Source: Anaerolineae bacterium (lineage in GTDB: Bacteria > Chloroflexota > Anaerolineae > Aggregatilineales > J027). Taken from it: a DNA stretch of 64,000 nt. The DNA lies in contig JAJTXY010000015.1 in assembly GCA_021463865.1 (NCBI GenBank), forward strand, positions 1 to 64,000. Reading direction: 5' to 3'. The notes under the pieces are model-generated. The model did no database searches. It saw nothing but the letters and a program-made list of their open reading frames with translations, and was not told the DNA's origin. The position numbers and the translations under genes are program-made. Positions 31,205 through 48,209 of this stretch are shown here, piece by piece. Within the stretch, counting starts at the first letter, position 1. Each line of letters starts with the position of its first letter.

Positions 31205-32509
31205 TCAGCTTGATAAAAGATGAGTAAGGCTATCCTGTGCCGCCGAAATGGTAGTTTGGACATCATCCATTGTATGAGCACTACTCAAAAAGCCCGCCTC
31301 AAATTGGCTTGGCGCTAAGTACACCCCGCGTTCCAGCATGGCATGGAAAAATTTAGCGTAGCGTTCCGTATGGGCATGTTGTTTGGCACTGGCATAATCG
31401 TGGATGACTGCATCCGCCGTTTTTAAGAAGTAGAATCCAAACATCGTGCCGACGCTGTCCGCCTGTAACGGGACACCAAGCGATTGGGCCGCCTCAACCA
31501 ATCCATTTATCAAGGCAGCAGTCAACTTTTTTGCATCATCGAATAATCCGCCGTCAAAGAGTGTCCGTAGAGTTGCGATACCTGCTGCCATCGCCAAGGG
31601 GTTGCCAGACAAAGTACCTGCTTGATACATCATGCCCGCTGGAGCGACGTGCTGCATGATATGGCGTTTTCCCGCATAGGCCCCAACGGGCAATCCCCCG
31701 CCGATGACCTTGCCCAAACAGGTGATGTCCGGGTCAAGATTCCACTCGGCTTGTGCGCCGCCGGGTGCGACTCGAAAACCTGTCATGACTTCATCCAAAA
31801 TGAAGACCGCGCCATATTGCTTGCAGAGGTCATGGATGCCTTGCAAAAAGCTGGGCTGTGGCAGCACAAAGCCCATATTGGCGGCGATGGGTTCAACAAT
31901 AACCGCCGCAATCGAATCAGGGTTTTGCTCAAAGAGTTCCCGTACTTGGTCAAGATCATTATAAACAGTGGTCAGGGTATGGGCGGCTGTCGAATTGGGT
32001 ACGCCGGGGGAATCAGGCAAACCAAGTGTAGCGACCCCACTCCCCGCCTGCACCAGCAGCATATCGGCATGACCATGATAACATCCGGCAAATTTGATGA
32101 TTTTGTCCCGTTCGGTATAGGCGCGTGCCAACCGCAGCGCACTCATGCAGGCTTCCGTGCCACTGTTGACAAAACGAATCATGTCTATGGAAGGGACGGC
32201 CTGAATCACCAACTCCGCCAAGTCATTCTCAAGTCGGGTCGGCGCACCATAGCTTGTCCCCTTGGCAGCGGTTTCGGCAATCGCTTCGACCACCGCTTCA
32301 TGGGCATGACCCAAAATCAGCGGCCCCCACGAAAGCACATAATCTATGTAGCGATTCCCATCCGCATCCCAGATATACGCGCCCTTGCCCCGTTCAATAA
32401 AACGCGGTGTACCACCCACACTACGAAAGGCACGTACTGGGCTATTGACGCCTCCGGGGATCAGGTGTTGTGCTTTTTGAAATAAATTTTCGGATTGGAC
32501 GGTTTTCAT
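31205..32509 (-). CDS. hemL: Glutamate-1-semialdehyde 2,1-aminomutase
   Basis: A 434-residue PLP enzyme converting glutamate-1-semialdehyde to 5-aminolevulinate. Start region [22 protein letters not shown], cofactor phosphate loop [39 protein letters not shown]-like [11 protein letters not shown], the PLP lysine in [16 protein letters not shown]. Length is normal. Its ATG overlaps the hemY stop by ATGA. With hemA in the same operon it provides ALA by the C5 pathway. Confidence 0.96.
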
Positions 32510-34002
32510 CCCACGACCTCAGATTGTTGAATTTTTCCTAGTAATTTGCTGACCGTTTGTTGGGACTGATAAATGCAATCTGGCATCCCGACCCCGCGAA
32601 AAGCACTCCCCGTCACCGCTATCCCGTCTGGCAAATTGGCTTCAATCGCTTCAATCAGCTTCAGATGGTCAACATCGTACTGGGGATTAGCCTGATGCCA
32701 GCGATAGATACGGTGGAACAGCGGGACGGATTCGATTCCCAAAATAGTGCAAAGTTCTTGACATATCACGCTGAGGAGTTGGTCATCATTGAAAGACATC
32801 GTCTCCGGACTGCGTGATCCACCAAAAAAGACCCGCAGCAGCACATAACCCTCTGGCGCACGATGGTCAAACTTGATGGATGAAATGGTTATAGCGTTGA
32901 TCGGGCGGCGTTCACTCTTGGGCACAACCAAGCCAAAGCCATGCAAAGGCCGTTTGATAGCCTCTGCCTTAAATGCCAGCGAAATCGTGCCCGTGCTGAC
33001 ATAACGGATCGTGGAAAGTTTTTCACCGACCGTCGGTGCGATCTCTTGCAACAAATTCGCCGCGATGTAGGCAGGCAATGTCAGCACAATCGCATCCGCC
33101 TTGAGGATTTCTCCTTGTTGGGTAATGACCTCATATTGCCCATCAGCATCGCGTTGGATTCGCGCCACCTTTGTGCCAAGCCGCAAATCACCCTCAAGAC
33201 GGCCTACGAGTGTATCCACCAATTCTTGTGTACCACCCTGCAACGACATAAACATGGCGATTTTGGGCGTATTGGATGATGGGGGCGCAGCATGAGGCGC
33301 TTGTTGACGACGGGAAGCAATCATCCCACGAATCAAACTGCGGTGCTGCTGTTCCAATTGTCGGAAACGCGGAAACGTCGCCAGAATACTTTGTTTATCG
33401 GCCTCGGCATTATAGATACCAGACATCAGGGGTTCGGCGATTTTATCAAGGGCCTCATTCCCCAATCTGCGGCGTACAAATTGGGCCAATGTCTCATCAT
33501 GGTCATCACGTTTTGGCGGGATGAATAAATCCAACCCCATCCGCAGCTTGCCGAGAGGTGAAATCAGGCGAGAGAAAACAAACGGCTTAAATTTGGTCGG
33601 CACAATCAACAACAACCCGTCGGGGAGTTTGACTGGTTTGCCGCGATGCAACACATAAACTGTCCGCATCTGGTCATTTGTCCCCAGCAACCGATCCCCC
33701 AAACCGAGTTCTTGCGCCAAACGGAGCGCCCATGGCTTTTGAGTGAGAAATGAATCCGGGCCTGCCTCAACCACAAAGGGCGTATCGCCGAACCCATCCA
33801 CTTGTTCGGTCAGAACTTTGCCACCCCACCGATCTGAGGCTTCCAGCACGGTATACCCGACATCAAGCCCTTGATTCTCGGATTGCTGCTGCAAATACCA
33901 CGCCGCGCTTAGGCCAGAAATTCCCCCACCAATGATGACGACATGCCGCCGTAAGGCTGATTGGGCATCAGTCTTGTTTGACTCTAAAACCACTGCTGTC
34001 AT
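32506..34002 (-). CDS. hemY: Protoporphyrinogen / coproporphyrinogen III oxidase, FAD type (CgoX)
   Basis: A 498-residue FAD oxidase of the HemG/HemY/CgoX class. FAD motif [20 protein letters not shown] lies after a 20-residue N-terminal extension. Substrate-domain features include [35 protein letters not shown] and the late [12 protein letters not shown]. In organisms with HemQ this enzyme oxidises coproporphyrinogen III to coproporphyrin III, which is the expected reaction here because hemQ and hemH are in the operon and no hemF/hemN is seen. It overlaps hemE and hemL by ATGA-type junctions. Confidence 0.92.
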
Positions 34003-35108
34003 GCGCTTGCCTCTGCACTCATATTCAACTGCTGACTGTATTCATGCACAAAATCCACCAACCGCCGCACATTTTCAATCGGTGTCTCCGGTAAAATGCC
34101 GTGACCCACATTGAAGATGTGACCGGGTTTGCCTTTTACGCTGTCCAAAATATGACGGGTACGCACCTTGAGCGCCTCCCAATCGGCAAATAACGCAACC
34201 GGGTCAAGATTGCCCTGTATGGCAACATCATCACCAAGCTGCTTCCAAGCCTGTGCTAGGTCTATCCGCCAATCCACCCCGATGACATCTCCCCCAGCGG
34301 ATTGGATGAGGTCTAACATCCCATTGGTATTCGTGCCAAAATGGATAATCGGCACACCGGACGCCCCCGCGATTTCCAACACACGACGGCTATAGGGCAG
34401 GACGTAATGTTCATAATCGAAGGGGCTTAGATCACCCACCCAACTGTCAAATAGTTGGAGAACTTGCGCCCCGGCTCGTGCCTGTGCCAAAAGATAATGT
34501 CCCGCGACTTCACTGAGTTTGGTCATTAAGCTGTGCCACAAGGCTGGTTGGCTCATCATCATATTTTTGACCGCAATCCGATTGCGACTGCTGCCGCCTT
34601 CTACCGCATAGCTGGCAAGGGTAAAGGGTGCGCCGCTGAATCCAATGAGGGGGATGCCGCGCTGGTCTAATTCATGCCGTGCCAATGTGATAGCCTTCAA
34701 CGTAAAGTGCAGCGTTTCTTCAGGGGGCAGCACGCGCAAATTCTCAATATCCTCGGCAGTACGGACGGGGTTGTGGATGATCGGCCCTTCGCCTTTGACA
34801 AACTCCAATTCCAGCCCCATGCCTTCAAGGGGTGGCAAAATATCGGCAAAAATAATCGCCGCATCCAAATCAAAGGCATTAATGGGTTGAAGGGTCACTT
34901 CGCAGGCCAATTCCGGCGTTTTAATCATCTCTAGGATGGTATATTTCTCACGCAGTTTACGATACTCCGCCATGTACCGTCCAGCTTGACGCATCAGCCA
35001 AATCGGGGTCATATCCGTCGGCTGACGACGACAGGCCCGCAGAAAACGACTGTCTTGCAGCATGTCCGGTGCAGCGCTGACAGGCATGGGGGTTATTCGG
35101 GGATCCAT
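33999..35108 (-). CDS. hemE: Uroporphyrinogen decarboxylase
   Basis: A 369-residue UroD producing coproporphyrinogen III. Conserved sequence [20 protein letters not shown], the [14 protein letters not shown] active-site Asp motif, [15 protein letters not shown] and [13 protein letters not shown] are all present. The ATG at 35108 lies inside the end of hemB with a 16-base overlap; starts 7 or 15 codons later exist but would have poorer ribosome sites than GAGGCGG. It is immediately followed by hemY (4-base overlap). Confidence 0.95.
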
Positions 35109-36133
35109 TGGGCCGCCTCTTTTGCAAAATAGGTGAGGATCAAATCCGCACCCGCCCGTTTGATGCTAGTGAGGGTTTCCAATGCACAGCGTCGCAGGTC
35201 AATCCACCCATTCGCTGCCGCCGCATGAAGCATGGCGTATTCTCCGCTGACCTGATACGCCGCGACGGGCAGGTTGTATGACTGCCGAACCGCGCTCAGA
35301 ATATCGAGATAGGGCAAGGCAGGCTTGACCATCAGCATATCTGCCCCTTCAGCCACATCAAGCGCGACCTCCTTCAGCGCCTCTCGACGATTGGCAGGGT
35401 CCATCTGATATTCGCTACGATCTCCAAATTGGGGTGGACTTTCAGCAGCATCACGGAACGGGCCATAAAAACCGCTGGCGTATTTAGCGGCATAACTCAT
35501 AATCACCACATGGTCAAACCCGGCATCATCCAACCCCGCCCGAATCGCCCCCACCATACCATCCATCATCCCCGACGGCGCGATGATGTCCGCCCCCGCT
35601 TCGGCATGGACAATCGAAGCCCGTGCCAATAGCTCTAACGTTGGGTCGTTGAGCAGATAGCCTTCCGGCAAATGAGGCTGATAATAGGCATCACCGGGTT
35701 GATTGATAATCCCACAATGCCCATGATCGGTATATTCGCAAAAGCACATATCCGAAATGACCATCATTTCCGGCACGGCATCTTTGATAGCCCGAATCGC
35801 GCTTGGGATAATGCCATTCGGTTCATAATTCTCACTTCCGCAGGCGTCCTTTACATCCGGGATACCGAATAAAATGACTGCTGGAATGCCCAGTTGATAG
35901 GCAGCACGGACTTCCCCCACCACACGGTCAATTGACCATTGAAACTGACCGGGCATAGACCGAATTGGCTGTTGAATGTCGTGTCCATGCCGGATAAACA
36001 GCGGGTAGATAAAGTCGTTAGGAGATAGGCTTGTTTCCCGCACCATACGACGCAGTGCTTGAGTTCGGCGCAGGCGACGTGGGCGGATAACAGGCGGCGT
36101 TCCTGTGATTGTTTCAAGTTGTGTTTGGTTCAT
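35093..36133 (-). CDS. hemB: Porphobilinogen synthase (ALA dehydratase)
   Basis: A 346-residue enzyme condensing two ALA to porphobilinogen. Features: [28 protein letters not shown], the zinc site [12 protein letters not shown] with three Cys, the two active-site Lys in [16 protein letters not shown] and [12 protein letters not shown], and [14 protein letters not shown]. The three Cys mark the Zn-dependent type. It begins 2 bases after the hemD stop. Confidence 0.96.
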
Positions 36134-36135
36134 AG

Positions 36136-36924
36136 TTATCTCTCAGTTGATTCGAAATAGGTCTCTAAGATAGCGACGAGGCCCTCTAGGGAATGCTCGC
36201 TGGGAACATCCACGAGGGAAAAGCCATACGCTTGTGCAGTGGTCGCCGTCTTTGGGCCAATGCAGGCAGCCGGCAATGTAAGAGCCGTTTCCAGTTGTCC
36301 ACCCTCGTTTTGTAAGCGTTCCAGAAAGTAAGTGACGGTGGAGGAACTGGTAAAGGTCAGCATATCTACCTGCCCCTGTGTTAACAGATGGGGAATATTC
36401 GCCCCGCCGGTACCACACACCGTTTGATAGGCCGTTACAACAGTCACCTGTGCCCCGCGCTCTGAGAATTGATTTGCCAATGTTGGACGTGCAAGGGCGG
36501 ATTCGGGCAATAACACCCGTTCCCCTATCTTCAGCGGCAGGTGATTCGCCAATGATTCGGCGATATATTCGGCTGGTAAGTCGGCGATTGATATGCCCAG
36601 ATTTTGCTGGATGGCGTGCGCAGTGGCAGGCCCGATTGCCGCCGTTTGGAATCTGCCCCCATTAAGCGTCAATCCCAGTACAGCAAGGCGTTCCGCAATG
36701 GCAAATACGGTATTGGCGCTCGTCAGCACCAGCCACGCATAATGTCCCGCTACCAGATCAACCAATGTCGCATCCAGCAATGCGGGGTCATCTGGTGGGG
36801 TAATGGCGATACAGGGGTAATTAAGCGGTATAACATCATGTCGACGCAACAAGGTATTGAGCGCCTCGGCTTGATGGACGGCCCGTGTATTCACGATCCG
36901 CTTGCCCGCCAGAGCGCCAGTCAT
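36136..36924 (-). CDS. hemD: Uroporphyrinogen-III synthase
   Basis: A 262-residue, weakly conserved HemD protein of usual length. Recognisable parts are [16 protein letters not shown], the [14 protein letters not shown] strand, [44 protein letters not shown] and [15 protein letters not shown], and the ESLANHLP and TVVTAYQTV regions. It cyclises hydroxymethylbilane with inversion of ring D. The call also rests on its position between hemC (4-base overlap) and hemB. Confidence 0.9.
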
Positions 36925-37859
36925 TGCCGCTGCTCCATTAATCCCTTTGCCCCTTTTTCGAGGGCTTCTTCAGCTAAGGTGGCGCCCAGCGCGAAGGCCG
37001 CTTGTTCATCATCCACTACAGCGGTAATCGTGACATCAATTTGTTGTGTGCCGTCAGGGGCAGAGACTCGTCCGCGCAGTACCAGTTTGTTTTCTTGAAG
37101 TTGGGCATAGGCGGCGACGGGCACCGAGCATCCTCCACCTAACCCTGCAAGGAAAGCCCGTTCAGCGGTAATGGCTAGTGCAGTATCTTGATGATGGATA
37201 ATGTGGAGTGCCTCCAAAAGAGGCAATTCATTGCGGGTCTGTACGGCAATCGCACCTTGACCGGGGGCTGGCAGCATGGCTTCCAAATCCAGCAATTCAC
37301 TGACCACATCCAAACGCCCTAGTCGCTCCAAACCCGCATAGGCCAATACAATGGCATCATAATCCCCATCCGCCGCCAATGCTTTTTGGATGCGTGTATC
37401 TACATTGCCGCGAATATCAATCGTTTTCAGATCAGGACGAAGGTGACGAAGTTGCGCCGCCCGACGAGTGCTGCTGGTGCCAACCCGCGCCCCATTCGGT
37501 AAAGTCGCAAGGCTATACTCTCGGCGGCTGATCAGGGCATCACCGGGGTTGGCTCGTTCTGGAATCGCTCCGACGATTAATCCATCGGGCGGCTCGGTTG
37601 GTAAATCCTTGAGGCTGTGGACGGCACAATCAATGCGTTTTTCATGGAGTGCCGATTCCAATTCCGCCGTAAAAACCCCCTTGCCCCCCACCATTGGAAG
37701 CGGGGTATGTAGAATTTGGTCGCCGCGTGTCTTGATAATTTCGTATTCAAGCCGTAGGGAGGGGTCGGTTTCTTGCAATAGCACCATAATATGGCGGGTC
37801 TGCCACAGCGCTAAATCCGAGCCGCGTGTCCCGAATCGTAGTGTTTTGGCTGCACTCAT
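36921..37859 (-). CDS. hemC: Hydroxymethylbilane synthase
   Basis: A 312-residue protein polymerising four porphobilinogen. The start was placed at ATG 37859 (MSAAKTLRFGTRGSDLALWQ), which overlaps the hemA stop by ATGA; the frame runs on upstream to 37904 only as a shadow. Catalytic and cofactor features: RGSDLALWQTRH, KGVFTAELESALHE, DCAVHSLKDLPT, GTSSTRRAAQLRHLRPDL, RGNVDTRIQK and the dipyrromethane Cys in GLGGGCSVPVAAYA. Confidence 0.96.
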   Translation of the reverse strand: MSAAKTLRFGTRGSDLALWQTRHIMVLLQETDPSLRLEYEIIKTRGDQILHTPLPMVGGKGVFTAELESALHEKRIDCAVHSLKDLPTEPPDGLIVGAIPERANPGDALISRREYSLATLPNGARVGTSSTRRAAQLRHLRPDLKTIDIRGNVDTRIQKALAADGDYDAIVLAYAGLERLGRLDVVSELLDLEAMLPAPGQGAIAVQTRNELPLLEALHIIHHQDTALAITAERAFLAGLGGGCSVPVAAYAQLQENKLVLRGRVSAPDGTQQIDVTITAVVDDEQAAFALGATLAEEALEKGAKGLMEQRQ

Positions 37860-39268
37860 TGAGCCTGACCTGTCGTGTAGGGCAAGATACAGTGCAAATT
37901 GCACGGGTTGGATGCCTGTTCCACGACCCCGACGAAATTGCAGTGCCCCTCATCACACAGGCACTCATGGGCCTCCCCATCGTTCAGCGCAAACAATTCA
38001 CGCACTGCATGGGCATAACCATAGCCGTTGCCCACGTTTGCTTGCATCTTTAAACGCGAGGTGGGTTCGTGCAATAGCCGATTCACGAGGCGATGGGCCA
38101 TGCGACTGACGATCTGCCGAGTACGCTCATCAGCATCCGAAAGGCGACCCAATGTCTCCAATAGTTCTTCGTCAGCGATGTTCTGCGCCCAATCCCGTAG
38201 ATTCTTAATCACCGGGGTCACTTGACGCCCTCTATACCATTCGAGAAAGCGTATCATCTCCTGCTGGATAATCGCTTCCACCTCTGGGACAGCGGCTTTC
38301 CGTAATTCAACATTGGCATCCACCACTGATTGTAAATCGTCAATATCGTAATACTGGATATAGGGTAATTCCCGAACACCCTCTTCTACGTCACGCGGGA
38401 CGGCAATATCTACAATCACAAGTGGGTGGCCTGTTCGCTGAGAAACAACCGCTTCCAAATCGGAGCGATAGAGAATTGTATGCGGCGCTCCGGTAGCACA
38501 CACCACCGCATCGGCCCATGCGAGTGCTTCGTGAAGTTCATACCACGTCATAGCCTTGCCTTCAAAGTCAGTTGCCAACGTCTCAGCACGGTTATAGGTG
38601 CGATTGACAAAGGCGATCTCACTGATTGCGAATCGCTTAAGGGCCTGTGCCGCCAACACCGCCATTTCGCCTGCACCAATAATTAATATCTTTGATGCGG
38701 CACGCTGGGAAAGTTTTTCGAGCAATAGAAGCGCCCCAGCATGGCTGACCGAAGTGGTATAACGACTAATCGGGGTTTCAGCACGTGCGCGTTTGCCTGT
38801 ATGAATGGCTTGTGCAAACAGATGGGATAAAATCGGGCCGGTAAGGGCTGCGGCGCGGGCATCTTCAAAAGCCTGTGTTACCTGCCCCAATACCTGTGCT
38901 TCACCCAAAATCATAGAATCGAGGCCACAGGCTACTCGCATCAGGTGTTGAATCGCATCATTCGCAATCTGTTGATACAAATAGCTGTCTATTTCACTAT
39001 CGGGCAGATTCTGAAGTTTCGAGATAAATTGTTTGATCAGCTTAATTCCCTCATCCACCACCGATGCCTCTACATAGATTTCCAGTCGGTTACACGTAGA
39101 TAAAATGACCCCCTCATGGATGACCAATGATTGGTTGCCAGCAGGCGACTGGGTAAGGCTCTTTAGGTCTTCCAACGCAATCTGGAATGCACAACCGGAG
39201 AGGGTCAATTTTTCCCGTATCTCGACAGGGGTGGTTCGGTAGTTAAGTCCAACGACAGCGATAGTCAC
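37856..39268 (-). CDS. hemA: Glutamyl-tRNA reductase with Cys-rich C-terminal tail
   Basis: A 470-residue HemA. Normal features: GLNYRTTPVEIREK, active Cys in LSTCNRLEIYVE, RVACGLDSMILGEAQVLGQV, the NADP Rossmann motif KILIIGAGEMAVLAAQALK, FVNRTYNRAETLA and MAHRLVNRLLHEPTSRLK. After AVRELFALN, where most HemA end, about 37 residues follow containing HECLCDEGHCN and NPCNLHC: five Cys and three His in a short space. This could bind iron-sulfur, zinc or haem and act as a feedback sensor; it could also be a dispensable extension. It is fused in frame and its TGA overlaps hemC. HemA reduces glutamyl-tRNA to glutamate semialdehyde. Confidence 0.94.
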   Translation of the reverse strand: MTIAVVGLNYRTTPVEIREKLTLSGCAFQIALEDLKSLTQSPAGNQSLVIHEGVILSTCNRLEIYVEASVVDEGIKLIKQFISKLQNLPDSEIDSYLYQQIANDAIQHLMRVACGLDSMILGEAQVLGQVTQAFEDARAAALTGPILSHLFAQAIHTGKRARAETPISRYTTSVSHAGALLLLEKLSQRAASKILIIGAGEMAVLAAQALKRFAISEIAFVNRTYNRAETLATDFEGKAMTWYELHEALAWADAVVCATGAPHTILYRSDLEAVVSQRTGHPLVIVDIAVPRDVEEGVRELPYIQYYDIDDLQSVVDANVELRKAAVPEVEAIIQQEMIRFLEWYRGRQVTPVIKNLRDWAQNIADEELLETLGRLSDADERTRQIVSRMAHRLVNRLLHEPTSRLKMQANVGNGYGYAHAVRELFALNDGEAHECLCDEGHCNFVGVVEQASNPCNLHCILPYTTGQAQ

Positions 39269-39294: not shown

Positions 39295-40407
39295 TTAAAA
39301 TACAACCTGTCTTGTTTCTGGCTGATACGCGCAGAATGGCTCTTCAGCTAAATAATTGCCGCTGATTCCGTAGGAACGGGCACGGCAGCCCGCACACAAC
39401 GATTTGAACTGACAGATACCACACTTGCCTTCAAGCGCATCGGGGTCGCGTAATTCGGCAAATAACGGACTACCCTCCCAGATTTCTGAAAAGTCCTGTT
39501 GATGAATATTCCCCGCCTCAACAGGCAAATAACCACACGGGAACACTTCGCCGCGATGGGAGATAAAACAGACACCTGTTCCGGCAAGGCAACCCTTGGT
39601 GGCGGCGTGCATTTGCCCATGCGGATGACCATGTACTTGTCGGTCATAACTGGCCGGAAGTTCCTGCTGCGTTCCTTTGCGACGTTCTTCGGCGCGGCGG
39701 GTACGCATGACCCGGAAGTAATGCGGCGCACAGGTTGCTTTAAGCTGCAATTCTGGCTCAGATTGTTCAATGTCATAAAGCCAGTTGAGGACGCGCTCAT
39801 ATTCTTGAGCATTAATCATCTGCTCTTCGGCGATTTGCACCCCACAGCCAACAGGTACGAGCAAGAAAAGATGCAGCCCCACCGCATCCAAGTCTTTTGC
39901 CATTGCCAACATACTATCCAATTGCGCCTTGTTATGGTTAGCCACTGTCGTGTTAATTTGTACAGGTAGACCAACCTTGCGTAAGGCCCTAAACCCCACA
40001 ATCGCTGCTTCAAATGAACCGGGCAACCCTCGGAAAGTGTCATGGGTTCCAGCGTCCGCGCCATCAAAAGAAATGCTTACCCGGCGAACACCACTCGCTT
40101 GGATACGCGCCGCTACCGCATCGTCAATCAATGTGCCGTTGGTCGCCAATGCCACTGGTAAGCCCGCATCCGTCGCATAACGGGCAATATCATAAATATC
40201 AGGGCGGAACAGGGGTTCCCCACCCGATAAAACAAATACGGGTTTACCCACCCCAGCGATAGCATCAATCATGGCAAAAGCATCTGCCGTCGTTAAATCT
40301 TGCGGAGTGAGTTGATCTGCAACAGTTACGCGCCGACAGTGGATACAACGCAGATTGCAGCCTGCGGTGGTTTCCCAAAAAACAAGACGTGGTGCCGGAT
40401 AGGTCAT
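39295..40407 (-). CDS. AhbD-like radical SAM haem synthase (SPASM type)
   Basis: A 370-residue radical SAM enzyme. The [4Fe-4S] SAM cluster motif is CNLRCIHC, followed by LSGGEPLFRPDIYDIA, LATNGTLIDDA and SISFDGADAGTHDTFRGLPG, then FLLVPVGCGVQIAEE. The C-terminal SPASM-like region has GCLAGTGVCFISHRGEVFPCGYLP, then CGICQFKSLCAGCRARSYG, which would bind an extra cluster. This closely follows AhbD, which decarboxylates Fe-coproporphyrin III to haem in the siroheme-based route. Here it sits in a ChdC (HemQ) operon, so its role could be redundant, oxygen-free haem synthesis, or another porphyrin decarboxylation. It starts 26 bases before hemA and has a 130-base spacer upstream with direct repeats. 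Confidence 0.88.
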   Translation of the reverse strand: MTYPAPRLVFWETTAGCNLRCIHCRRVTVADQLTPQDLTTADAFAMIDAIAGVGKPVFVLSGGEPLFRPDIYDIARYATDAGLPVALATNGTLIDDAVAARIQASGVRRVSISFDGADAGTHDTFRGLPGSFEAAIVGFRALRKVGLPVQINTTVANHNKAQLDSMLAMAKDLDAVGLHLFLLVPVGCGVQIAEEQMINAQEYERVLNWLYDIEQSEPELQLKATCAPHYFRVMRTRRAEERRKGTQQELPASYDRQVHGHPHGQMHAATKGCLAGTGVCFISHRGEVFPCGYLPVEAGNIHQQDFSEIWEGSPLFAELRDPDALEGKCGICQFKSLCAGCRARSYGISGNYLAEEPFCAYQPETRQVVF

Positions 40408-40537: not shown

Positions 40538-41611
40538 TTAGGCGTGGCGCCGACCACTCTCCCCTTTTAAGCAGCAATCAATGGGGCAGATGTCATGACT
40601 TGGCCCATATGCTCCCAGAAAACGTCGCTCAGGCTGTGCGGTCATGCGTTCCAAGATAAGCTCACGGATCATTTGAATAAACGCCGGATGTGTCCCTACT
40701 GTTTCGGCTCGAACGAGATGGATACCCAATTCAGAGGCTAAGTGTTTTGCCTCGGTATCCAAATCAAAGAGCACTTCCATATGATCAGAGATGAACCCAA
40801 TCGGAATAATCAGGACATTGCTAATCCCCTGCCCCTTAAGTTGCTGAAGATAATCACAAATATCCGGTTCTAGCCATGGGACATGGGGCGGGCCGCTTCG
40901 ACTTTGATAGACCAATTGATAGTTCGTCGTGCCGATACGTTCCGCTATCAGGCGACACGCTTCTTCCAACTGGGCCACATATGGACTGTTGCGTGCCATA
41001 CCCATCGGGATACTGTGGGCCGTAAAAACAAAATGCACATCATTCTGTGTTTCGGGTGGGAATTGTGCAAAGGCCTGCCGTGTTTTTTCCACCATTGGCG
41101 CAATAAAACCGGGATGGTTATAAAAAACACGCAGTTTGTCAAAAGCTGGCACATCCGCCCCCACCACTTCATAGGCCCGTATCACATCTTCTCGATATTG
41201 GCGGCAGCCGGAATAGGAACTAAAAGCTGAGGTAACAAATACGAGCGCCCGCTGCACCCCGTCATCCTGCATTTGACGCAGAGTATCGGTGAGAAAGGGA
41301 TGCCAGTTGCGATTGCCAAAGTAGATGGGTAGTTGCGGGCCGTGCTGCTTAAGTTCTTTTTCTAAAGCGGCGATCAGGAGGCGGTTCTGTTGATTAATTG
41401 GGCTTACCCCTCCAAAGTCATAATAATGGGCCGCGACTTCTTCCAACCGTTGTTGTGGAATCGCGCGTCCTTCTGCAACATTTTGAAGAAATGGGATCAC
41501 ATCCTCCATTCCTTCCGGGCCACCAAATGACAAAACTAGAATCGCATCGTAGGTTCGGGCCTCATCGTCATATTTGGGCGTCCCGACGGTTTGTGCGCCA
41601 TGTATACTCAT
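40538..41611 (-). CDS. hemH: Ferrochelatase (coproporphyrin ferrochelatase CpfC type)
   Basis: A 357-residue HemH. Features: AILVLSFGGPEGMEDVIPFL, YDFGGVSPINQQN, the metal-site His in FTAHSIPMG, VYQSRSGPPHVPWLEPD and IIPIGFISDHMEVLFDLD (the conserved Glu). Cys residues occur in SSYSGCRQYRE and in CPIDCC at the C-terminus. That pattern is like the four Cys that bind a [2Fe-2S] cluster in actinobacterial ferrochelatases, though exact spacing differs. With HemQ it would insert iron into coproporphyrin III. It begins 10 bases after hemQ. Confidence 0.94.
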   Translation of the reverse strand: MSIHGAQTVGTPKYDDEARTYDAILVLSFGGPEGMEDVIPFLQNVAEGRAIPQQRLEEVAAHYYDFGGVSPINQQNRLLIAALEKELKQHGPQLPIYFGNRNWHPFLTDTLRQMQDDGVQRALVFVTSAFSSYSGCRQYREDVIRAYEVVGADVPAFDKLRVFYNHPGFIAPMVEKTRQAFAQFPPETQNDVHFVFTAHSIPMGMARNSPYVAQLEEACRLIAERIGTTNYQLVYQSRSGPPHVPWLEPDICDYLQQLKGQGISNVLIIPIGFISDHMEVLFDLDTEAKHLASELGIHLVRAETVGTHPAFIQMIRELILERMTAQPERRFLGAYGPSHDICPIDCCLKGESGRRHA

Positions 41612-41621
41612 AATTAGAACA

Positions 41622-42761
41622 CTATCCTTCTATTTTTTCGGCGACCTGTGTGCCAACATAAATCACCCCATCCCGGATTTCGACCTGATAGGTCTCAACA
41701 GGTTTTCTGACCACCCCATCTAGCGCCGCACCTGTCCTAAGGTCAAATTTGCCATAGTGCCACGGGCAAACCACGCTGCATTCGTGGGCATTCACCGCAC
41801 CATCTGTTAAAGGGCCTCGCGCATGGGTACACCGATTATTGATGGCGTAAATCGTGTCCTCGATGTTGAAAAGCCCCACCATCTTGCCCTCAAGGAAAAC
41901 TACCTTTGTTTCGCCGGGGGCAAATTCATCCAATGGGCAGACCTCTGTCCATGCCTCATGAATTTCATTCGATGACACAGGCTGGGCAATGGGTGGCCCC
42001 CCCAGCGCATCTAAGGCTTCTTCAAGGCGCATATTGATTGAGGTAAATAAGGGGGTGTCTTGTAACGTATATCGGCTGGACTCGGTTTCGCGGAGTTCCT
42101 GTACCAAATCAAGGAAATCGGACGGTTCGTCGGTTTCAAATGCAACAATAAATTCATAATCATCCAATCCAAAGCTATAGGTGGTGTTGAGTCGAACCGA
42201 GGGATATTTGCGTCCCACTTCAATATGTTCGTCCATAATTCCTTGTCGAGCATGGAGCGACAACTGATACCAATCGCGTGTCTTGATGAAGGGATAGACA
42301 AAAAGATATTTGGCTTCGGATGGGTCAATAACCAAGCGTTCTTCATGGGTGTCATCATTGGCGCTGCGGATTTCATAGATGGAGCGTTTGGTCTGCGAAA
42401 AATAGGAGTAGACCATGTTCAAATATCCCCCCATTCGTGTACTGGCAATCGCAGTAGCGAGTTCTCGAAAGGGGAGCGGATTTTCGGCGATCTGCCAGAG
42501 CAAAAGTTCGGCGTCAGAGCGTGTACCCATCAAGCTATAGGGCCGGAGCAACATTTGGCGGTTAAAAGTACGAATGACATCGGCCAATTCTTGTTTTTGC
42601 TGTGATTGTTCTGCGGCTTCCAATCTGCGCCAAAGAGGATCCACTCTATAAAATGCAAATCGCACATACTGGCGACGTGAAAGTTGTCGGCCTCGGTCTT
42701 CAGATTGACCACTAGGCTGATGATTTGAACGATGATTCGATCTTGATCCGGGGGCACCCAT
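41622..42761 (-). CDS. hemQ: HemQ (coproheme decarboxylase, ChdC) fused to a Rieske domain
   Basis: A 379-residue fusion. Residues about 25-265 are a chlorite-dismutase-fold HemQ: FAFYRVDPLWRRL, MGTRSDAELLLWQIAENP, KYLFVYPFIKTRDWYQL (the WY motif with the likely radical Tyr), MDEHIEVGRKYPSVR and NTTYSFGLDDYEFIVAFETD. After a short linker, residues about 275-375 form a Rieske [2Fe-2S] domain of the NirD/ferredoxin type, with CTHARG (C-x-H) and CPWHYGKFDL (C-x2-H) ligands. HemQ oxidatively decarboxylates iron-coproporphyrin III to haem b. The Rieske part could deliver electrons, sense redox state or bind a partner. The first 25 residues are Ser/Gln-rich. It is first in the haem operon. Confidence 0.92.
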   Translation of the reverse strand: MGAPGSRSNHRSNHQPSGQSEDRGRQLSRRQYVRFAFYRVDPLWRRLEAAEQSQQKQELADVIRTFNRQMLLRPYSLMGTRSDAELLLWQIAENPLPFRELATAIASTRMGGYLNMVYSYFSQTKRSIYEIRSANDDTHEERLVIDPSEAKYLFVYPFIKTRDWYQLSLHARQGIMDEHIEVGRKYPSVRLNTTYSFGLDDYEFIVAFETDEPSDFLDLVQELRETESSRYTLQDTPLFTSINMRLEEALDALGGPPIAQPVSSNEIHEAWTEVCPLDEFAPGETKVVFLEGKMVGLFNIEDTIYAINNRCTHARGPLTDGAVNAHECSVVCPWHYGKFDLRTGAALDGVVRKPVETYQVEIRDGVIYVGTQVAEKIEG

Positions 42762-43208: not shown

Positions 43209-45335
43209 CTACCCCTGCTTTAGTCGAATCACATGCTCGTGCGCATACTGCTCCGGGAAGGCGATACGCAAGATCGTTAGGGCTTCCTCACCAGACCAAC
43301 CCCGACTCATCATCTCGGCTATGAGGCCTGAAATGATTGGGGCAGCAAACGACGTACCCGACCAGCGTGCCCACCCCGTTGTGTTAGGTGCAAGCCGTTG
43401 CCAATCTTCCTTACTTAGGTCGGGCGGGTTTTCGGGATAAGGGCCAGTATAAACACCCAAGATGCCAGTCTTTGCATTGCTAAATTTCGGGTTGGCAGAA
43501 TCTATATCCCCGCCAAAGACGGCAACACCCGCATGAACGGGATAATCTGCCAGATTGCTATAGTCGGTCAGTTGGTTATTACTGGAATCAAGGGCAGCGA
43601 CCCCTAATACTGTTGGCATAGACGCAGGCATCCGCGCCGGGGTGCGTGATTTTCCACCATTTAAGCCATCGTTTCCCGCGGCGGCCACTACTACCCCGCC
43701 CGCATTGACGACCCGTGCAATACGTTCTTGGATATGATAGAGTTTGAGCAACCCGTCCAAGACATTTTTCTTGGAGGGCGGGATATTGGGATTGGCTTGC
43801 GCGTAGGCTACAATCGCCATCGGCAACGTAATGGGCAAAGTCAAATACGTTAGAAATTGCTCAAGGTCAACCAAGATACTATCGAGTAACCCCCGTAATT
43901 CCGCGTCTTCCTGATCTAATGCCAAATAAAGTTCTTTCAGCCATGCGTCCGGGTGGTCCGCATTTGCGGGCACACTGAAGGTTAGGCTCAAATTGACGAC
44001 CAATTTCTCCTTGTCAGGGTTAAACCCCTTCAGGGCAGTATCCAAACCCGCGAGGTAGGTCATAAGAGTACCTGACCCAAACGCATTGAGGACTTCGACA
44101 AGATGGAGTTCTGTTCCCGGTGATATGGAATGAATGATGCCCGCTGCAAATAGGCCATGATCCATTTTCCACTGTCGAAAATATTGATCTTGGACGCAGG
44201 CACGGTTGAGTTCATAACCCCGTTGGATGATCGGTTTCGCGTCAAATGTCTCACCCGTAATTGGGTCGGTAAAATAGGTAATGCGCAAAATATCGGATTT
44301 TAGCTCATTCGTGGCAGGATCACGCCGAAGACCTTCGACAAGTCCTGTCGCTGTATCCGTTGAGCGCAGCAAGGACTCTAGCAGGGGATTGGTAGCGCCA
44401 AACTCATCATAGGCTTTTGAAAGACTGATGGGAAGTACATCCCCAGCCAGCCGCTTCTCCCCAATATCTGGAGGGTCGGGGTCTTTGGTGGGTGGCGCGG
44501 TATCCAAAATGACCACGCGCACCTTTTGGGGTTTGACCGCATCCTTCGGCAGCGGATGTTCCAGCATCATTTGCAGTGTGTGTTGAAATGTTTTGATGAC
44601 AGTCGCAACAGATTTTTTGGCATTGGGGTTGTTGGATTTGAACCCAAAGGCTTGTTCGTAATATTTCATCAAATTGGCAGGGAGGCCCGTCACCCCGGTT
44701 GGCTCAACCGAAAACTGATAGTCGGATGGCTTGTTGAGGGTCGCTGCAACTGGATTGCCCGCTGGCCCGCCCCCACCCGTACCTGAATCTGGCGGCGCTG
44801 GTGGTTCGTTCGGTGCACCGTTACTTAACCAATTAGGTGAGGCACCCAGTAGTTCGAATTCGCGGGGCGTGTAATCGTGACGATTGCCCGTAACCCTACG
44901 TAGTTTCCAATAGATTTGGTGAACACCCCGACCAGTCCTTGTCAAAAATGTTTGCAATCCAGACGGCGCATTCTTCTCCCATATCTTAAGAATTGGCTGA
45001 AAAAACCTTTCGGCGGATGATGGTTCTCTAAAAGGAACAAGGATACGATAAATTTTCAGAACCTCTTTGAAAAGATCGGCATCAGGTAGTCTGGGATACA
45101 TTGCAGCTATATAAGTAACAGGAGGCAGACGGTGAGATAGAGACGCCTCGCTTACAAAGCGAAGCGGAGGTTTTTCCGATGAAATATCAATTTCGGGAAC
45201 AAGGCAGTCGTTTGAAGTCAAAAAGGTCTTTAAAAAATCAACCACTGCACTTGGCGTGGCATCAGGGGGATGCGTTACCAGATACACGATTTGGTGGGGT
45301 GCAAAAGCACGGGTTTCGGTTGTTAAGTCTTCCAT
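43209..45335 (-). CDS. Cytoplasmic subtilisin-like (S8) serine protease
   Basis: A 708-residue protein with an S8 peptidase domain in about 275-700. Catalytic signature regions: Asp in RVVILDTAPPTKD, His in KMDHGLFAAGIIHSI, the oxyanion Asn in VVAAAGNDGLNG, and Ser in SGTSFAAPIISGLIAEM (Ser about 662). It has no signal peptide, so it acts in the cytosol, unlike most subtilases. The N-terminal about 270 residues (TRAFAPHQIVYLVTHPPDATP onward) are unrecognised and include a Gly/Pro-rich linker; they may be an inhibitory or recruitment domain. A large insert separates His and the Asn region. It is 21 bases downstream of the TPR-CHAT gene, cotranscribed, so a protease cascade is plausible. Confidence 0.88.
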   Translation of the reverse strand: MEDLTTETRAFAPHQIVYLVTHPPDATPSAVVDFLKTFLTSNDCLVPEIDISSEKPPLRFVSEASLSHRLPPVTYIAAMYPRLPDADLFKEVLKIYRILVPFREPSSAERFFQPILKIWEKNAPSGLQTFLTRTGRGVHQIYWKLRRVTGNRHDYTPREFELLGASPNWLSNGAPNEPPAPPDSGTGGGGPAGNPVAATLNKPSDYQFSVEPTGVTGLPANLMKYYEQAFGFKSNNPNAKKSVATVIKTFQHTLQMMLEHPLPKDAVKPQKVRVVILDTAPPTKDPDPPDIGEKRLAGDVLPISLSKAYDEFGATNPLLESLLRSTDTATGLVEGLRRDPATNELKSDILRITYFTDPITGETFDAKPIIQRGYELNRACVQDQYFRQWKMDHGLFAAGIIHSISPGTELHLVEVLNAFGSGTLMTYLAGLDTALKGFNPDKEKLVVNLSLTFSVPANADHPDAWLKELYLALDQEDAELRGLLDSILVDLEQFLTYLTLPITLPMAIVAYAQANPNIPPSKKNVLDGLLKLYHIQERIARVVNAGGVVVAAAGNDGLNGGKSRTPARMPASMPTVLGVAALDSSNNQLTDYSNLADYPVHAGVAVFGGDIDSANPKFSNAKTGILGVYTGPYPENPPDLSKEDWQRLAPNTTGWARWSGTSFAAPIISGLIAEMMSRGWSGEEALTILRIAFPEQYAHEHVIRLKQG

Positions 45336-45356: not shown

Positions 45357-48209
45357 CTATTCGGATAAACAAGTCGGACTGCTAAAAGGATCAGGATTGC
45401 CGATTAGCTGAAAAGCCCCCCAATAGGCGGGATGCAAATCGGCGATATAGGATAACTGAGCACATTGCGCTTGGCGTATCGCTGATGCCTTAGACTCACC
45501 AGTTTTTAGCAACTGATAAACGGTTTCCATTTGACTATACGCGCCGTTATCTTCTACGCGCCAAAGACTGACTAACAAAGCGCCAGCCCCTGCATATAAA
45601 CACCCCCGCCCCAACCCGATAGGCTCATCGCTACTGGTGATTGAAGCCCGCCCAGTTTCACACGCGCTTAACGTCACCAATTCATAACTTAAGTCGTGCT
45701 GTAATAGATCATCCGTAAAAAGCTGCCCATCCGCCAATTCAATATAGGCAAGGTCTGGATAGTCCATCCGAAATTCACCATGAGCCGCGATATGCAAGAC
45801 TTGGCAAGGCACCTGTTGAAGCGTATTCCTAGTCGCTTGATCCTCCACATAAATTTGACCACCGAGGAGATGATGTACCATTTGCGCCTCACAAACCGTT
45901 TGGGGTAAACGGCCATTTTGGGCATGGGCCACCACCACTGCACCCGGCTGACGGACTGGGCTGGGCTGTGTAATAAGTCCGCCTGCTGGAAGGACGACAA
46001 TCTCATGTTGTTCGATGAGATACCCGTCATCCGAGGTCAGGAGATGAAAGGGTAGGTAATGTAAAATGCCATAGGGCACGATGGTCAGGCGTTTTTTGCC
46101 AGTGATCTGTGCAGCGAGTGGCTCCAACAATGCTGAATAGAGTTGGCAACTGATGTCACGGAATTGGTGGGTCAAAAATTTGACCACTGAACCATGACGA
46201 CCAGCTTGAAGAACACAGTTGATATTAAATTGCAGTTGTTGAATCCAATGATTGACTTCGCGGAGCGCAACAGGCAGCTTAAATACTTCAAGATGGGCCG
46301 AGTCCAGCACAAAGGCCCACAGATGTTGTCCGTCATTGTAGTATTCGATCAGCAGGGAGGTTTGGGAAAGTCGGTGTTGAATGGTCGCTACGTCTGGCAG
46401 GACTAAGCCAAAGGAATGCGGGTTATTTGGATTTTGGAGATACAGCCGCTCCCGAATGGCAAGCAGTTGTTTTTCACATTCGGCTAATCTGCGGCGGGCT
46501 TGTTCGGGGGTGAGGCTGTCTTTTGAGGGGATTTCTTCTCTTACAACCCGATACAACCACTGATATTCTTCTCGAAGCTGCTCAAATTGGCTCTGGAACT
46601 GGCGAGAATCGGGATCAATATCGCCCCAATGTAAGCTATCCCGACTGCCCAAATAGGTGAAAAACGTCTGCGATTTGGCACGTTCTAGGGTTTCGTAGGC
46701 ACAGGCATTTTGACCATCCTGCAAATATAAACGGATCAATGATCGAAGGGCATCCGCCTTATCATCCAGAAAACTTGTCCGCAGTGTCAGCGACAACCCT
46801 TTTTGAACGCGCTCCACACTGGTTGATGCAGCCCAATAGTGGCGATACGCTCGTCGGTACTGTGATTTTGCCTCCGCTAGTTGACCAAGCAACAAATGGG
46901 CACTGTAGCGACTCAAGGCCAAGCGACTGTGCAACGCTCGTCGAAGTGCTTCCTGTGCCACTTGAGCAGCTCCGGCAAGATCATGCAGAGCGTAGAGAGC
47001 CTGCCCTTGGCGCAAAAGCGCATTGACATAACTTACTTGGAAATGATCGGAAAATTGATTGATTGCATTCGACGCCTCAGAATAAGCAAGGGTGGGGTTA
47101 TTTTGTTTTAGGGCGATGGTAGCACGCCAAACCCCAATGCTGGGTAACCAGTCCTGCATTTGCATCTCGATAAAAACTTGTTCGGCTGCTTCCAGTGCCG
47201 ATTGTGCGGCCTCTAATCGCCCCAGTTCCGCCTCGGCAGTTGCCAGATTAAAAAGACAAACAGCCTTTGAAAAAGGGGCTTTTAAGGCTTCATAGTCTTC
47301 AATGACCCTCAGAGCCAGTTCGCGGGCTTCTGGAAATCGGTTCAACGCCAGATAACATTCTACAATCCGATGACTGGCATAAGCCTGAATTTTGCGCGGC
47401 GAGGCATCTGTCTGGGCCTGCTGTTGGGCTTGATGGAGGAGTTGTAAGGCTCGGCGATAGTGGCCCTGTTTCAAAAGTACACTAGCGATATTCAATTCAA
47501 TCTGGCTTAACCACTGCACTTCTTGGCGGCGTGTACAAATCGTTTGGGCTTGTTCTAAATATTCGAGGGCAAGCTGTAAATTCCCCATAATAAAATAGGT
47601 GTAGCCAAGATTATTGTTCATCCGACCCAGATATTGTTCGCCATTCTCGCCCAGCGATTCGGCCAACCGAAGGGCGGAGTCGAAGCAGTCCAGCGCAGCT
47701 TGGCAATTTCGCAAATCCTGATAGACCATGCCACGATTCATTTCTAGGTTGAGCAATAATTCCCACTGTTGGTGTCGCTTCAAAATTTCAGCAGCTTCGG
47801 CGGCTTCCGTCAAAATTTCGTCTACGATATTAAGTTCGATGCAGATTATCAACGGGCCAATCCGCGTTCTCGCCCAACCCACCTCATCGTCAATGCTCAA
47901 AAATAAGCGTGCCGCTTCTTGAAAATATTCCCACGCCTTTTCGTTGTCACCAAGGAACTTTAGCGCATCACCAAGCGCCATCTTCCCTAACGCGATTTGC
48001 CATAGATTGTCATGCACCGTTCCGATTTCAATAATAAGTTCCGCACGACGCACCGACTCACGCGGATCAATAGACCAATAATGATTCGCTTGGGATTTGA
48101 TGTTAAGGACTAAGAGGTGGTCTTCATCAGGAGACAACGCGAGATCAGCAAGTATTAACTTCCCCTCCAGCAATAAGTAAATTAGTTCTTCCAAATTAGC
48201 TTGCTGCAT
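45357..48209 (-). CDS. TPR-CHAT caspase-like protease
   Basis: A 950-residue protein. From about 40 to 560 are many TPR motifs (for example AWEYFQEAARLFLSIDDEVG, CFDSALRLAESLGENGEQYL, LEYLEQAQTICTRRQEVQW, ALQLLHQAQQQAQ), then a helical spacer, then a CHAT domain (about 650-940). Catalytic residues fit: His in VLHIAAHGEF (about 810) and Cys in VTLSACETG (about 850), with LYAGAGALLVSLWRV beyond. CHAT proteases are caspase-like and act in programmed death and defence, including as the protease of type III-E CRISPR effectors, where TPR-CHAT cleaves a protein that holds a sigma factor. Here sigma and zinc-finger genes lie upstream, so a related switch is likely. No CRISPR locus was seen. Confidence 0.9.
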   Translation of the reverse strand: MQQANLEELIYLLLEGKLILADLALSPDEDHLLVLNIKSQANHYWSIDPRESVRRAELIIEIGTVHDNLWQIALGKMALGDALKFLGDNEKAWEYFQEAARLFLSIDDEVGWARTRIGPLIICIELNIVDEILTEAAEAAEILKRHQQWELLLNLEMNRGMVYQDLRNCQAALDCFDSALRLAESLGENGEQYLGRMNNNLGYTYFIMGNLQLALEYLEQAQTICTRRQEVQWLSQIELNIASVLLKQGHYRRALQLLHQAQQQAQTDASPRKIQAYASHRIVECYLALNRFPEARELALRVIEDYEALKAPFSKAVCLFNLATAEAELGRLEAAQSALEAAEQVFIEMQMQDWLPSIGVWRATIALKQNNPTLAYSEASNAINQFSDHFQVSYVNALLRQGQALYALHDLAGAAQVAQEALRRALHSRLALSRYSAHLLLGQLAEAKSQYRRAYRHYWAASTSVERVQKGLSLTLRTSFLDDKADALRSLIRLYLQDGQNACAYETLERAKSQTFFTYLGSRDSLHWGDIDPDSRQFQSQFEQLREEYQWLYRVVREEIPSKDSLTPEQARRRLAECEKQLLAIRERLYLQNPNNPHSFGLVLPDVATIQHRLSQTSLLIEYYNDGQHLWAFVLDSAHLEVFKLPVALREVNHWIQQLQFNINCVLQAGRHGSVVKFLTHQFRDISCQLYSALLEPLAAQITGKKRLTIVPYGILHYLPFHLLTSDDGYLIEQHEIVVLPAGGLITQPSPVRQPGAVVVAHAQNGRLPQTVCEAQMVHHLLGGQIYVEDQATRNTLQQVPCQVLHIAAHGEFRMDYPDLAYIELADGQLFTDDLLQHDLSYELVTLSACETGRASITSSDEPIGLGRGCLYAGAGALLVSLWRVEDNGAYSQMETVYQLLKTGESKASAIRQAQCAQLSYIADLHPAYWGAFQLIGNPDPFSSPTCLSE

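What the first reader, a model, noticed from the sequence alone, without database searches (positions are those of the whole stretch)
41622..42761. HemQ fused to a Rieske [2Fe-2S] domain
The coproheme decarboxylase carries a full C-terminal Rieske domain with both ligand pairs (C-x-H and C-x2-H). HemQ uses peroxide and needs no electrons, so the fusion suggests redox sensing, peroxide control or link to the next radical SAM enzyme. I do not recall this fusion being described in function.
Basis: partly seen in the sequence, partly recalled or inferred. Interest (0 to 1): 0.65.

Follow-up and report, generated by a model that had tools for sequence, protein, structure and literature searches.

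The report
Heme-making enzyme with built-in ferredoxin
The last enzyme of heme synthesis in this Chloroflexota-type bacterium carries its own electron-carrying iron-sulfur domain; the fusion is real, arose once as far as sampled, is kept in many bacteria, and suggests that this heme-maker uses electrons that its known relatives do not need.

Summary
Window 41622-42761 (-) is one 379-aa ORF: a coproheme decarboxylase (HemQ/ChdC) domain joined to a complete Rieske ferredoxin domain. It heads a run of heme genes: ferrochelatase, AhbD-like radical SAM, HemA-C-D-B-E-Y. It is not a sequencing error: 42 of 42 fused loci from named genomes keep the four cluster ligands, and on a tree of 113 HemQ domains the fusion needs one change. 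It occurs in Chloroflexota and Gemmatimonadota, with a few loci labelled to other phyla. HemQ catalytic residues are invariant in 54 of 54 rows. The Rieske lacks the disulfide cysteines of respiratory Rieske proteins, so it looks like an electron-donating ferredoxin. Best reading, inferred (0.42): it passes electrons to the coproheme/heme iron, for O2 activation or ferryl rescue. Service to the radical SAM enzyme is possible but not general. Unexpected: in six distinct genomes the chain continues as HemQ-Rieske-AhbA-AhbB, and neither HemE nor the radical SAM AhbC was found. An aldo/keto reductase gene sits beside HemQ-Rieske in HemE-less genomes. This hints at an undescribed siroheme-derived heme route. 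No description of the fusion was found in the open-access papers searched.

The parts
41622..42761 (-). HemQ-Rieske fusion gene, 379 aa
   Evidence: ORF; Pfam Chlor_dismutase + Rieske; AF2 model
41997..42674 (-). HemQ/ChdC domain, about aa 30-255
   Evidence: Pfam aa 54-242; VIA-align model range 29-256, Z 26.6
42294..42296 (-). Tyr156, aligned to the catalytic Tyr of ChdC (Y135 in C. diphtheriae, number recalled)
   Evidence: invariant in 54 of 54 rows; register from the PDB alignment; a catalytic Tyr radical in HemQ is in PMC10548856 passages
42225..42227 (-). His179, aligned to the proximal heme ligand
   Evidence: invariant in 54 of 54 rows; role recalled
41649..41954 (-). Rieske [2Fe-2S] ferredoxin domain, about aa 270-371
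   Evidence: Pfam Rieske and Rieske_2; VIA-align 269-372, Z 17.9 to 3gce
41823..41831 (-). Rieske ligand pair 1, C311-T-H313
   Evidence: conserved in 42 of 42 fused loci
41757..41768 (-). Rieske ligand pair 2, C332-P-W-H335
   Evidence: conserved in 42 of 42 fused loci
40538..41611 (-). ferrochelatase (HemH/CpfC), with SGCRQY...ED and C-terminal CxxxCC
   Evidence: NCBIfam PRK00035.2-1 464.6 bits, over the cut-off 408; best PDB relative 28wn, coproporphyrin III ferrochelatase, 310.9 bits
39295..40407 (-). AhbD-like radical SAM/SPASM protein
   Evidence: TIGR04545 454.6 bits, cut-off 500 not reached
37856..39268 (-). HemA, glutamyl-tRNA reductase
   Evidence: TIGR01035 412.6 bits, over the cut-off
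36921..37904 (-). HemC, hydroxymethylbilane synthase
   Evidence: TIGR00212 334.4 bits, over the cut-off
36136..36924 (-). HemD, uroporphyrinogen-III synthase
   Evidence: Pfam HEM4 159.6 bits; NCBIfam HemD models below their cut-offs
35093..36133 (-). HemB, porphobilinogen synthase
   Evidence: PRK09283.1 509.9 bits, over the cut-off
33999..35108 (-). HemE, uroporphyrinogen decarboxylase
   Evidence: TIGR01464 424.9 bits, over the cut-off
32506..34002 (-). HemY-type protoporphyrinogen/coproporphyrinogen oxidase
   Evidence: TIGR00562 296.8 bits, over the cut-off 97.85

Best explanation
HemQ-Rieske is the organism's coproheme decarboxylase with a built-in, low-potential Rieske ferredoxin. Shown: the fusion, a single origin on the sampled tree, intact cluster ligands, intact HemQ active-site residues, and its place in a gene run with the coproporphyrin-dependent heme genes. 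Inferred: the Rieske domain passes electrons, one at a time, to the iron of coproheme or heme bound in the HemQ domain. This would let the enzyme activate O2 (ferric to ferrous, then O2 plus a second electron to the peroxo level) instead of depending on free H2O2, or would return a stray ferryl or ferric state to rest so that the new heme is not bleached. The upstream electron donor is unknown.
For: Ligands kept in 42 of 42. Both disulfide cysteines of bc1-type Rieske proteins are absent in 40 of 40 rows, and the bc1 Tyr position is Phe in 39 of 40 (bc1 positions recalled), which fits a low-potential ferredoxin. The nearest solved relatives of the domain are oxygenase ferredoxins. Coproheme-HemQ of Listeria has a potential of -205 mV and rests ferric (PMC5157759 passages), roughly within reach of such a ferredoxin (about -150 mV, recalled). 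Single origin with no loss on a tree of 113 HemQ domains; a Rieske-domain tree also needs one change, weakly supported at 64. The domain is kept in genomes with and without HemE, with and without a TIGR04545 match, and with and without attached AhbA/AhbB, so its role most likely belongs to the shared HemQ reaction.
Against: No electron transfer was measured and no cluster-to-heme distance could be read from the model. Known HemQs are described as needing only H2O2. The reductase domain of the usual partner of oxygenase ferredoxins (Pfam PF14759) was not found in the window's own genome at 1e-4, and is in 6 of 18 fused against 6 of 43 other order genomes. No separate Rieske gene was seen near 37 unfused HemQs (phmmer E 1e-8; flanks from almost none to 10 kb), so no split version supports a functional pairing.
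Confidence: 0.42

Rival explanations
1. The Rieske domain serves partner enzymes of the same gene run: electron acceptor or donor for the AhbD-like radical SAM coproheme decarboxylase, or for keeping iron ferrous at the ferrochelatase.
For: Same gene run in the window; full-length AhbD-like match (438-475 bits) in 16 of 18 fused genomes of the order against 0 of 43 others, or 18 of 18 against 1 of 43 with weaker matches; AhbD is proposed to need an electron acceptor (PMC11306076 passages); ferrochelatase is directly adjacent.
Against: 9 of 34 fused genomes reached through named loci have no TIGR04545 match at 1e-50, and only 6 of the 34 exceed 430 bits. 10 of 43 fused or probably fused loci show an AhbD-like gene within their flanks, many of which are short. 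G046, probably fused, has no match. AhbD has its own auxiliary clusters. The HemQ-Rieske loci with the aldo/keto reductase show no ferrochelatase match (one other HemE-negative genome, G650, does, in L084).
Confidence: 0.18
2. The Rieske cluster is a redox or peroxide sensor that gates HemQ activity.
For: The Rieske cluster is redox active; HemQ degrades its own product with excess H2O2 (PMC5157759 and PMC5746218 passages).
Against: I know of no Rieske gate on a heme enzyme (recalled); the closest solved relatives are electron carriers.
Confidence: 0.12
3. The domain is mainly structural or a docking tether, for example to hand coproheme from ferrochelatase to HemQ; the cluster is incidental.
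For: Other HemQ fusions could be tethers: ChdC-CpfC in Cutibacterium acnes (PMC10427985 passage) and PitA (PMC5746218 passages).
Against: All four ligands kept in 42 of 42 loci, which a mere tether would not need.
Confidence: 0.14
4. Annotation or assembly artefact joining two genes.
For: None found.
Against: Same fusion in many assemblies, at down to 43% identity to the window's protein.
Confidence: 0.01

Closest known systems
HemQ/ChdC, H2O2-dependent coproheme decarboxylase (Actinobacteria, Firmicutes)
   Same: Fold (Z 25-26 to C. diphtheriae and S. coelicolor ChdC), Tyr156 and His179 positions, place in a gene run with HemH, HemE and HemY.
   Different: Carries a C-terminal Rieske domain; scores below the NCBIfam equivalog cut-offs (132.8 of 235; 81.9 of 253).
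Haloferax PitA, ChdC joined to an ABM-like domain
   Same: ChdC with an extra C-terminal domain, in an organism that also has AhbD; deletions point to ChdC for aerobic and AhbD for anaerobic heme synthesis (PMC5746218 passages).
   Different: Partner domain is a heme-binding ABM-like barrel, not an iron-sulfur ferredoxin.
ChdC-CpfC fusion of Cutibacterium acnes
   Same: Fusion of the terminal heme enzyme (PMC10427985 passage).
   Different: Partner is ferrochelatase.
Rieske ferredoxins of oxygenases (BphA3, CarAc, naphthalene dioxygenase ferredoxin)
   Same: Fold and ligand pattern.
   Different: Those are free carriers for non-heme oxygenases (recalled); here joined to a heme-binding enzyme, with no PF14759 match in the genome.
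AhbA/AhbB siroheme decarboxylase
   Same: Present as C-terminal domains of the same chain in the long fusions (NCBIfam over cut-off in six distinct proteins).
   Different: Known ones are two chains or one AhbA-AhbB type chain (PMC4835899 passages) and work with AhbC and AhbD; the six long-fusion genomes show no AhbC match at 1e-30, and the three tested show no AhbD match at 1e-50.

Membership tests
HemQ/ChdC coproheme decarboxylase | Chlorite dismutase family fold and Pfam score | tested here: met
   PF06778 191.5 bits, cut-off 25; Z up to 26.6 to the fold
HemQ/ChdC coproheme decarboxylase | NCBIfam equivalog cut-off (NF042928 or PRK12276) | tested here: not met
   132.8 bits against 235; 81.9 against 253. 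So it is HemQ-like by fold, residues and context, not a model-certified equivalog; the unfused L116 also stays below (139.6)
HemQ/ChdC coproheme decarboxylase | Catalytic Tyr and proximal His | tested here: met
   Y156 and H179 in 54 of 54 rows; register to ChdC
HemQ/ChdC coproheme decarboxylase | Gene context of the coproporphyrin-dependent pathway | tested here: met
   HemH, HemE, HemY, HemA-D in the same run of genes
HemQ/ChdC coproheme decarboxylase | Converts coproheme to heme b with H2O2 | not testable with these tools
   needs enzyme assay
Rieske [2Fe-2S] domain | CxH...CxxH ligands in a Rieske fold | tested here: met
   42 of 42 fused loci; Z 17.9
Rieske [2Fe-2S] domain | Binds a [2Fe-2S] cluster | not testable with these tools
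   needs EPR
Chlorite dismutase (true Cld) | Distal Arg | tested here: inconclusive
   positions 192-193 are N-T in 54 of 54 rows, but that the distal Arg falls there is recalled, not aligned here
AhbD heme synthase (window 39295-40407) | TIGR04545 equivalog cut-off 500 | tested here: not met
   454.6 bits; best family nonetheless

The most novel reading that the evidence does not exclude
HemQ-Rieske is a module of an undescribed, oxygen-using siroheme-derived route to heme. In six distinct genomes one chain, HemQ-Rieske-AhbA-AhbB, together with a neighbouring aldo/keto reductase, stands where HemE and the radical SAM AhbC are not found (AhbD was tested and not found in three of the six). The electron-fed HemQ-Rieske part, or the reductase with it, would do the missing acetate removal as well as the propionate decarboxylation; the window's enzyme would be the same electron-fed module used in the coproporphyrin route.
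Probability: 0.15. Interest if true: 0.87.

Novelty: new variant of a known kind. Interest (0 to 1): 0.6.

Why it matters
HemQ chemistry is described as needing peroxide and no electrons. A whole clade that kept a ferredoxin domain in every sampled member suggests an electron-using form, with consequences for how heme is made safely at low peroxide. The long fusions bear on an open question: some archaea have AhbA/AhbB-type genes but no AhbC/AhbD-type genes (Sulfolobus acidocaldarius among them, PMC3004389, passages), and a Haloferax study allowed for an unknown coproheme-forming route (PMC5746218, passages). A single gene holding HemQ, Rieske, AhbA and AhbB makes that question testable.

Tried and rejected
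Assembly artefact: rejected. True chlorite dismutase: unlikely, since the context is heme synthesis, though the distal-Arg test is inconclusive. Specific service to AhbD: weakened, because 9 of 34 fused genomes show no match. A BphA4-type reductase (PF14759) as obligate partner: not supported. A free Rieske gene beside unfused HemQ as a split version: none seen in 37 unfused loci at phmmer E 1e-8, flanks from almost none to 10 kb. An actinobacterial distal His: the position (139) lies in a gappy stretch and is His in 7 of 40 fused rows and 0 of 14 unfused, so it is not conserved. Model geometry: coordinates are not readable here, so no cluster-to-heme distance. A promoter scan upstream found no sigma-70-type site and one terminator-like match, near the shuffle mean. 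Not tested: siroheme chelatase and heme proteins in the long-fusion genomes; HemE for the genome of L112; what the 237-380-bit TIGR04545 matches are, apart from the one in L086.

Results that do not fit the bold reading: HemE-less, reductase-bearing genomes without the long fusion are mixed. G336, G640 and G643 have four PF17805 matches each outside HemQ; G623, G628, G639 and G641 (and G624, whose reductase side is not held) have one weak match (E about 1e-9); G622 and G437 (99% complete) have none at 1e-8, so the source of coproheme in those two is unexplained. G622, G623, G624, G639, G641 and G643 have radical SAM matches of 360-380 bits to TIGR04545, so absence of an AhbC/AhbD-type enzyme is not shown there. 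No PF17805 match was found in the window's order, 0 of 61.

Counts to read with care: handles G631 and G288, and G644 and G101, are the same assemblies (same contig numbers and lengths; shared sequence confirmed), so eight long-fusion handles are six genomes. The match list is capped. Off-phylum MAG labels (L076, L081 Armatimonadota; L085 Hydrogenedentota; L097 Heimdallarchaeota) may be binning errors; not checked.

Full report
WHAT IS THERE. Window 41622-42761, minus strand, encodes 379 aa. Pfam finds Chlor_dismutase at 54-242 and Rieske/Rieske_2 at 271-369. The ligand pairs are C311-T-H313 and C332-P-W-H335. The gene is the first of a same-strand run down to 32506: HemQ-Rieske, ferrochelatase, AhbD-like radical SAM protein, HemA, HemC, HemD, HemB, HemE and a HemY-type oxidase. 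The gap to ferrochelatase is 10 bases. This is the gene set of the coproporphyrin-dependent pathway plus an AhbD-like gene. Co-location of ahbD with hemY/hemH/hemQ is already reported (PMC10548856, passages).

IS THE FUSION REAL. Of 61 genomes of the order (own included), 17 have a hit over both domains, an 18th is cut by a contig edge within HemQ, and a 19th (G046) shows only a tail fragment at a contig edge; no HemQ hit without Rieske appeared. A scan of named genomes returned the 80 best of 571 relatives, from a capped candidate list. Of these, 42 carry HemQ plus Rieske, one (L112) ends at a contig edge, and 37 are unfused. All 42 keep CxH...CxxH. The fused loci come from Chloroflexota and Gemmatimonadota, with a few MAGs labelled Armatimonadota, Hydrogenedentota and Heimdallarchaeota that may be misbinned.

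ONE ORIGIN. A tree of 113 HemQ domains (110 different; 56 fused, 57 unfused; Rieske part not used) needs one change of state, with SH-aLRT 87 on the branch; shuffles need about 38 on average and 0 of 500 came as low. A tree of 57 fused and 16 free Rieske domains also needs one change, but with weak support, 64. No loss of the domain is seen within the fused clade. Sampling favours fused forms, so rare losses cannot be excluded.

BOTH HALVES LOOK ALIVE. Tyr156, Lys160, Arg162 and His179 are invariant in 54 of 54 rows, fused and unfused. The Tyr and His positions match the catalytic Tyr and proximal His of ChdC by the PDB alignment (residue numbers recalled). The distal His of actinobacterial ChdC is not conserved (position 139 is His in 7 of 40 fused and 0 of 14 unfused rows, in a gappy stretch). 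The NCBIfam HemQ equivalog cut-offs are not reached, so HemQ is assigned by fold, residues and context. The Rieske part lacks the bc1 disulfide cysteines (positions 316 and 334; 40 of 40) and has Phe in place of the bc1 Tyr in 39 of 40 (bc1 pattern recalled). The position of the bc1 Ser is Ser in 8 of 40. This is the make-up of low-potential Rieske ferredoxins (recalled), and the best structural matches are oxygenase ferredoxins. Purifying selection acts on both parts in three close comparisons.

HOW IT MIGHT WORK. HemQ as described uses two H2O2 per heme and a Tyr radical (PMC10427985 and PMC10548856, passages) and bleaches heme when H2O2 is in excess (PMC5157759, passages). The coproheme iron in LmHemQ has a potential of -205 mV and rests ferric. 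A low-potential Rieske in the same chain could make it ferrous, so that O2 can be used, or could quench ferryl after turnover. I commit to electron delivery to this iron at 0.42. The argument that the role lies in the HemQ reaction itself is that the domain is kept in genomes that differ in much else: with HemE (24 fused genomes, one of them, G630, with the match split in two pieces below cut-off) or without, with or without a TIGR04545 match, and with or without attached AhbA/AhbB. No donor is known: PF14759 was not found in the window's genome and is only weakly associated (6 of 18 against 6 of 43).

THE RADICAL SAM LINK. In the order, a TIGR04545 match at 1e-60 is found in 18 of 18 genomes with HemQ sequence and in 1 of the other 43. 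Of the 18, 16 score 438-475 bits over the whole model; two (G011, G047) score about 238 bits over the first two thirds, as does the one outside the set (G039, 249 bits). The G047 protein (read as L086) is better matched by TIGR04053 (497.8 bits, over its cut-off). G046, a likely 19th fused genome, has no match. Keeping or losing heme synthesis as a whole would give the same pattern. In 34 fused genomes reached through named loci (four of them repeats of order genomes), 25 have a match at 1e-50, but only 6 exceed 430 bits; the other 19 score 237-380 and may be other families; nine have none. The Haloferax precedent gives the simplest reading of the pair: ChdC for aerobic and AhbD for anaerobic heme synthesis (PMC5746218, passages).

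AN UNEXPECTED EXTENSION. In some fused genomes the chain is longer: HemQ-Rieske-AhbA-AhbB, with both siroheme decarboxylase subunits well above the NCBIfam cut-offs in each of the six distinct proteins scanned (L104; L042, L096, L130; L155, L153). Eight handles, six distinct genomes, carry it. HemE was found in none (E 1e-20) and AhbC in none (E 1e-30; the same search did detect the AhbD-like protein of the window's genome, at 1.6e-40). AhbD was not found in the three of them tested (E 1e-50). In L104 the neighbours include a precorrin-2 dehydrogenase type protein, HemA, HemC, a methylase-HemD (CobA-HemD type) fusion, HemB, a DUF1802 protein, an aldo/keto reductase and a class-III aminotransferase of the HemL type (the HemL name is recalled). 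That is a siroheme-type set without its deacetylase. Whether a siroheme chelatase is present was not tested.

THE ALDO/KETO REDUCTASE. The reductase gene lies 0-414 bases from HemQ-Rieske in 17 of 50 loci examined, 16 of them distinct. Of the 15 distinct genomes among these tested for HemE, 14 have none and one (G641) has a fragment below cut-off. Of 23 HemE-positive fused genomes in the same scan none has the reductase in its flanks, though several flanks are short; the whole 64-kb window has no match either. Two HemE-less genomes lack it in what is held: G624, where the contig begins at HemQ, and G650, whose hem contig ends before the place where relatives carry HemE. The reductase also lies directly beside one unfused HemQ, L120, so the pairing may be older than the fusion. 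Its substrate is unknown; its best NCBIfam match is far below cut-off. Not every genome of this kind fits a siroheme route: AhbA/B-type matches are strong and separate from HemQ in G336, G640 and G643, weak in five others, and absent at 1e-8 in G622 and G437; six of the HemE-less or reductase-bearing genomes have radical SAM matches of 360-380 bits that were not identified.

LITERATURE. Searches for HemQ, ChdC, coproheme decarboxylase or chlorite dismutase together with Rieske and for HemQ with siroheme decarboxylase or aldo-keto reductase gave no description of either fusion in the listings or in the passages I read. I read passages of PMC7242693, PMC10060970 and PMC12342949 among the Rieske co-mentions; the others I saw as listings only, apart from papers cited here by passage, and searches list 30 of 54 and 20 of 43 papers. 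Only open-access papers are held; PMC5312243, PMC5348300 and PMC2923992 were not available. PMC3004389 (passages) already listed S. acidocaldarius, Haloquadratum walsbyi and Nitrosopumilus maritimus as having AhbA/B-type genes without AhbC/D-type genes.

VERDICT. A real, conserved, apparently undescribed domain variant of HemQ; the electron-transfer role is inferred; the long fusions make it more interesting than the single observation.

Noticed in passing
L104:9989-12166; L042:13-2298; L096:1180-3552; L130:9968-12523; L155:8407-10959; L153:4109-6544: One chain joins HemQ, Rieske, AhbA and AhbB in genomes where HemE and AhbC were not found.
   Followed up: partly
L104:8905-9900 and 16 other loci; L120:3555-4709: An aldo/keto reductase gene sits beside HemQ-Rieske in HemE-less genomes and in none of 23 HemE-positive ones scanned; also beside one unfused HemQ.
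   Followed up: partly
L085:11109-13151: HemE and ferrochelatase-like regions lie in one 681-aa frame next to HemQ-Rieske, possibly another fusion.
   Followed up: no
window 43209-45335 and 45357-48209: Upstream of HemQ-Rieske, a subtilase next to a TPR-CHAT protein, then a small protein with a marginal zinc-finger match (48216-48962) and one without Pfam match (49039-49746); a protease pair worth a look.
   Followed up: no
L114-L151 without L130 (unfused HemQ of Nitrospirota, Acidobacteriota and others): In 37 unfused loci no heme gene of the query set was matched within the flanks held, except one HemY-like gene about 8 kb away in L137, unlike most fused ones.
   Followed up: no
L086:6459-7766: A TIGR04053 radical SAM protein (over cut-off) lies directly upstream of HemQ-Rieske; its function is unknown.
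   Followed up: no
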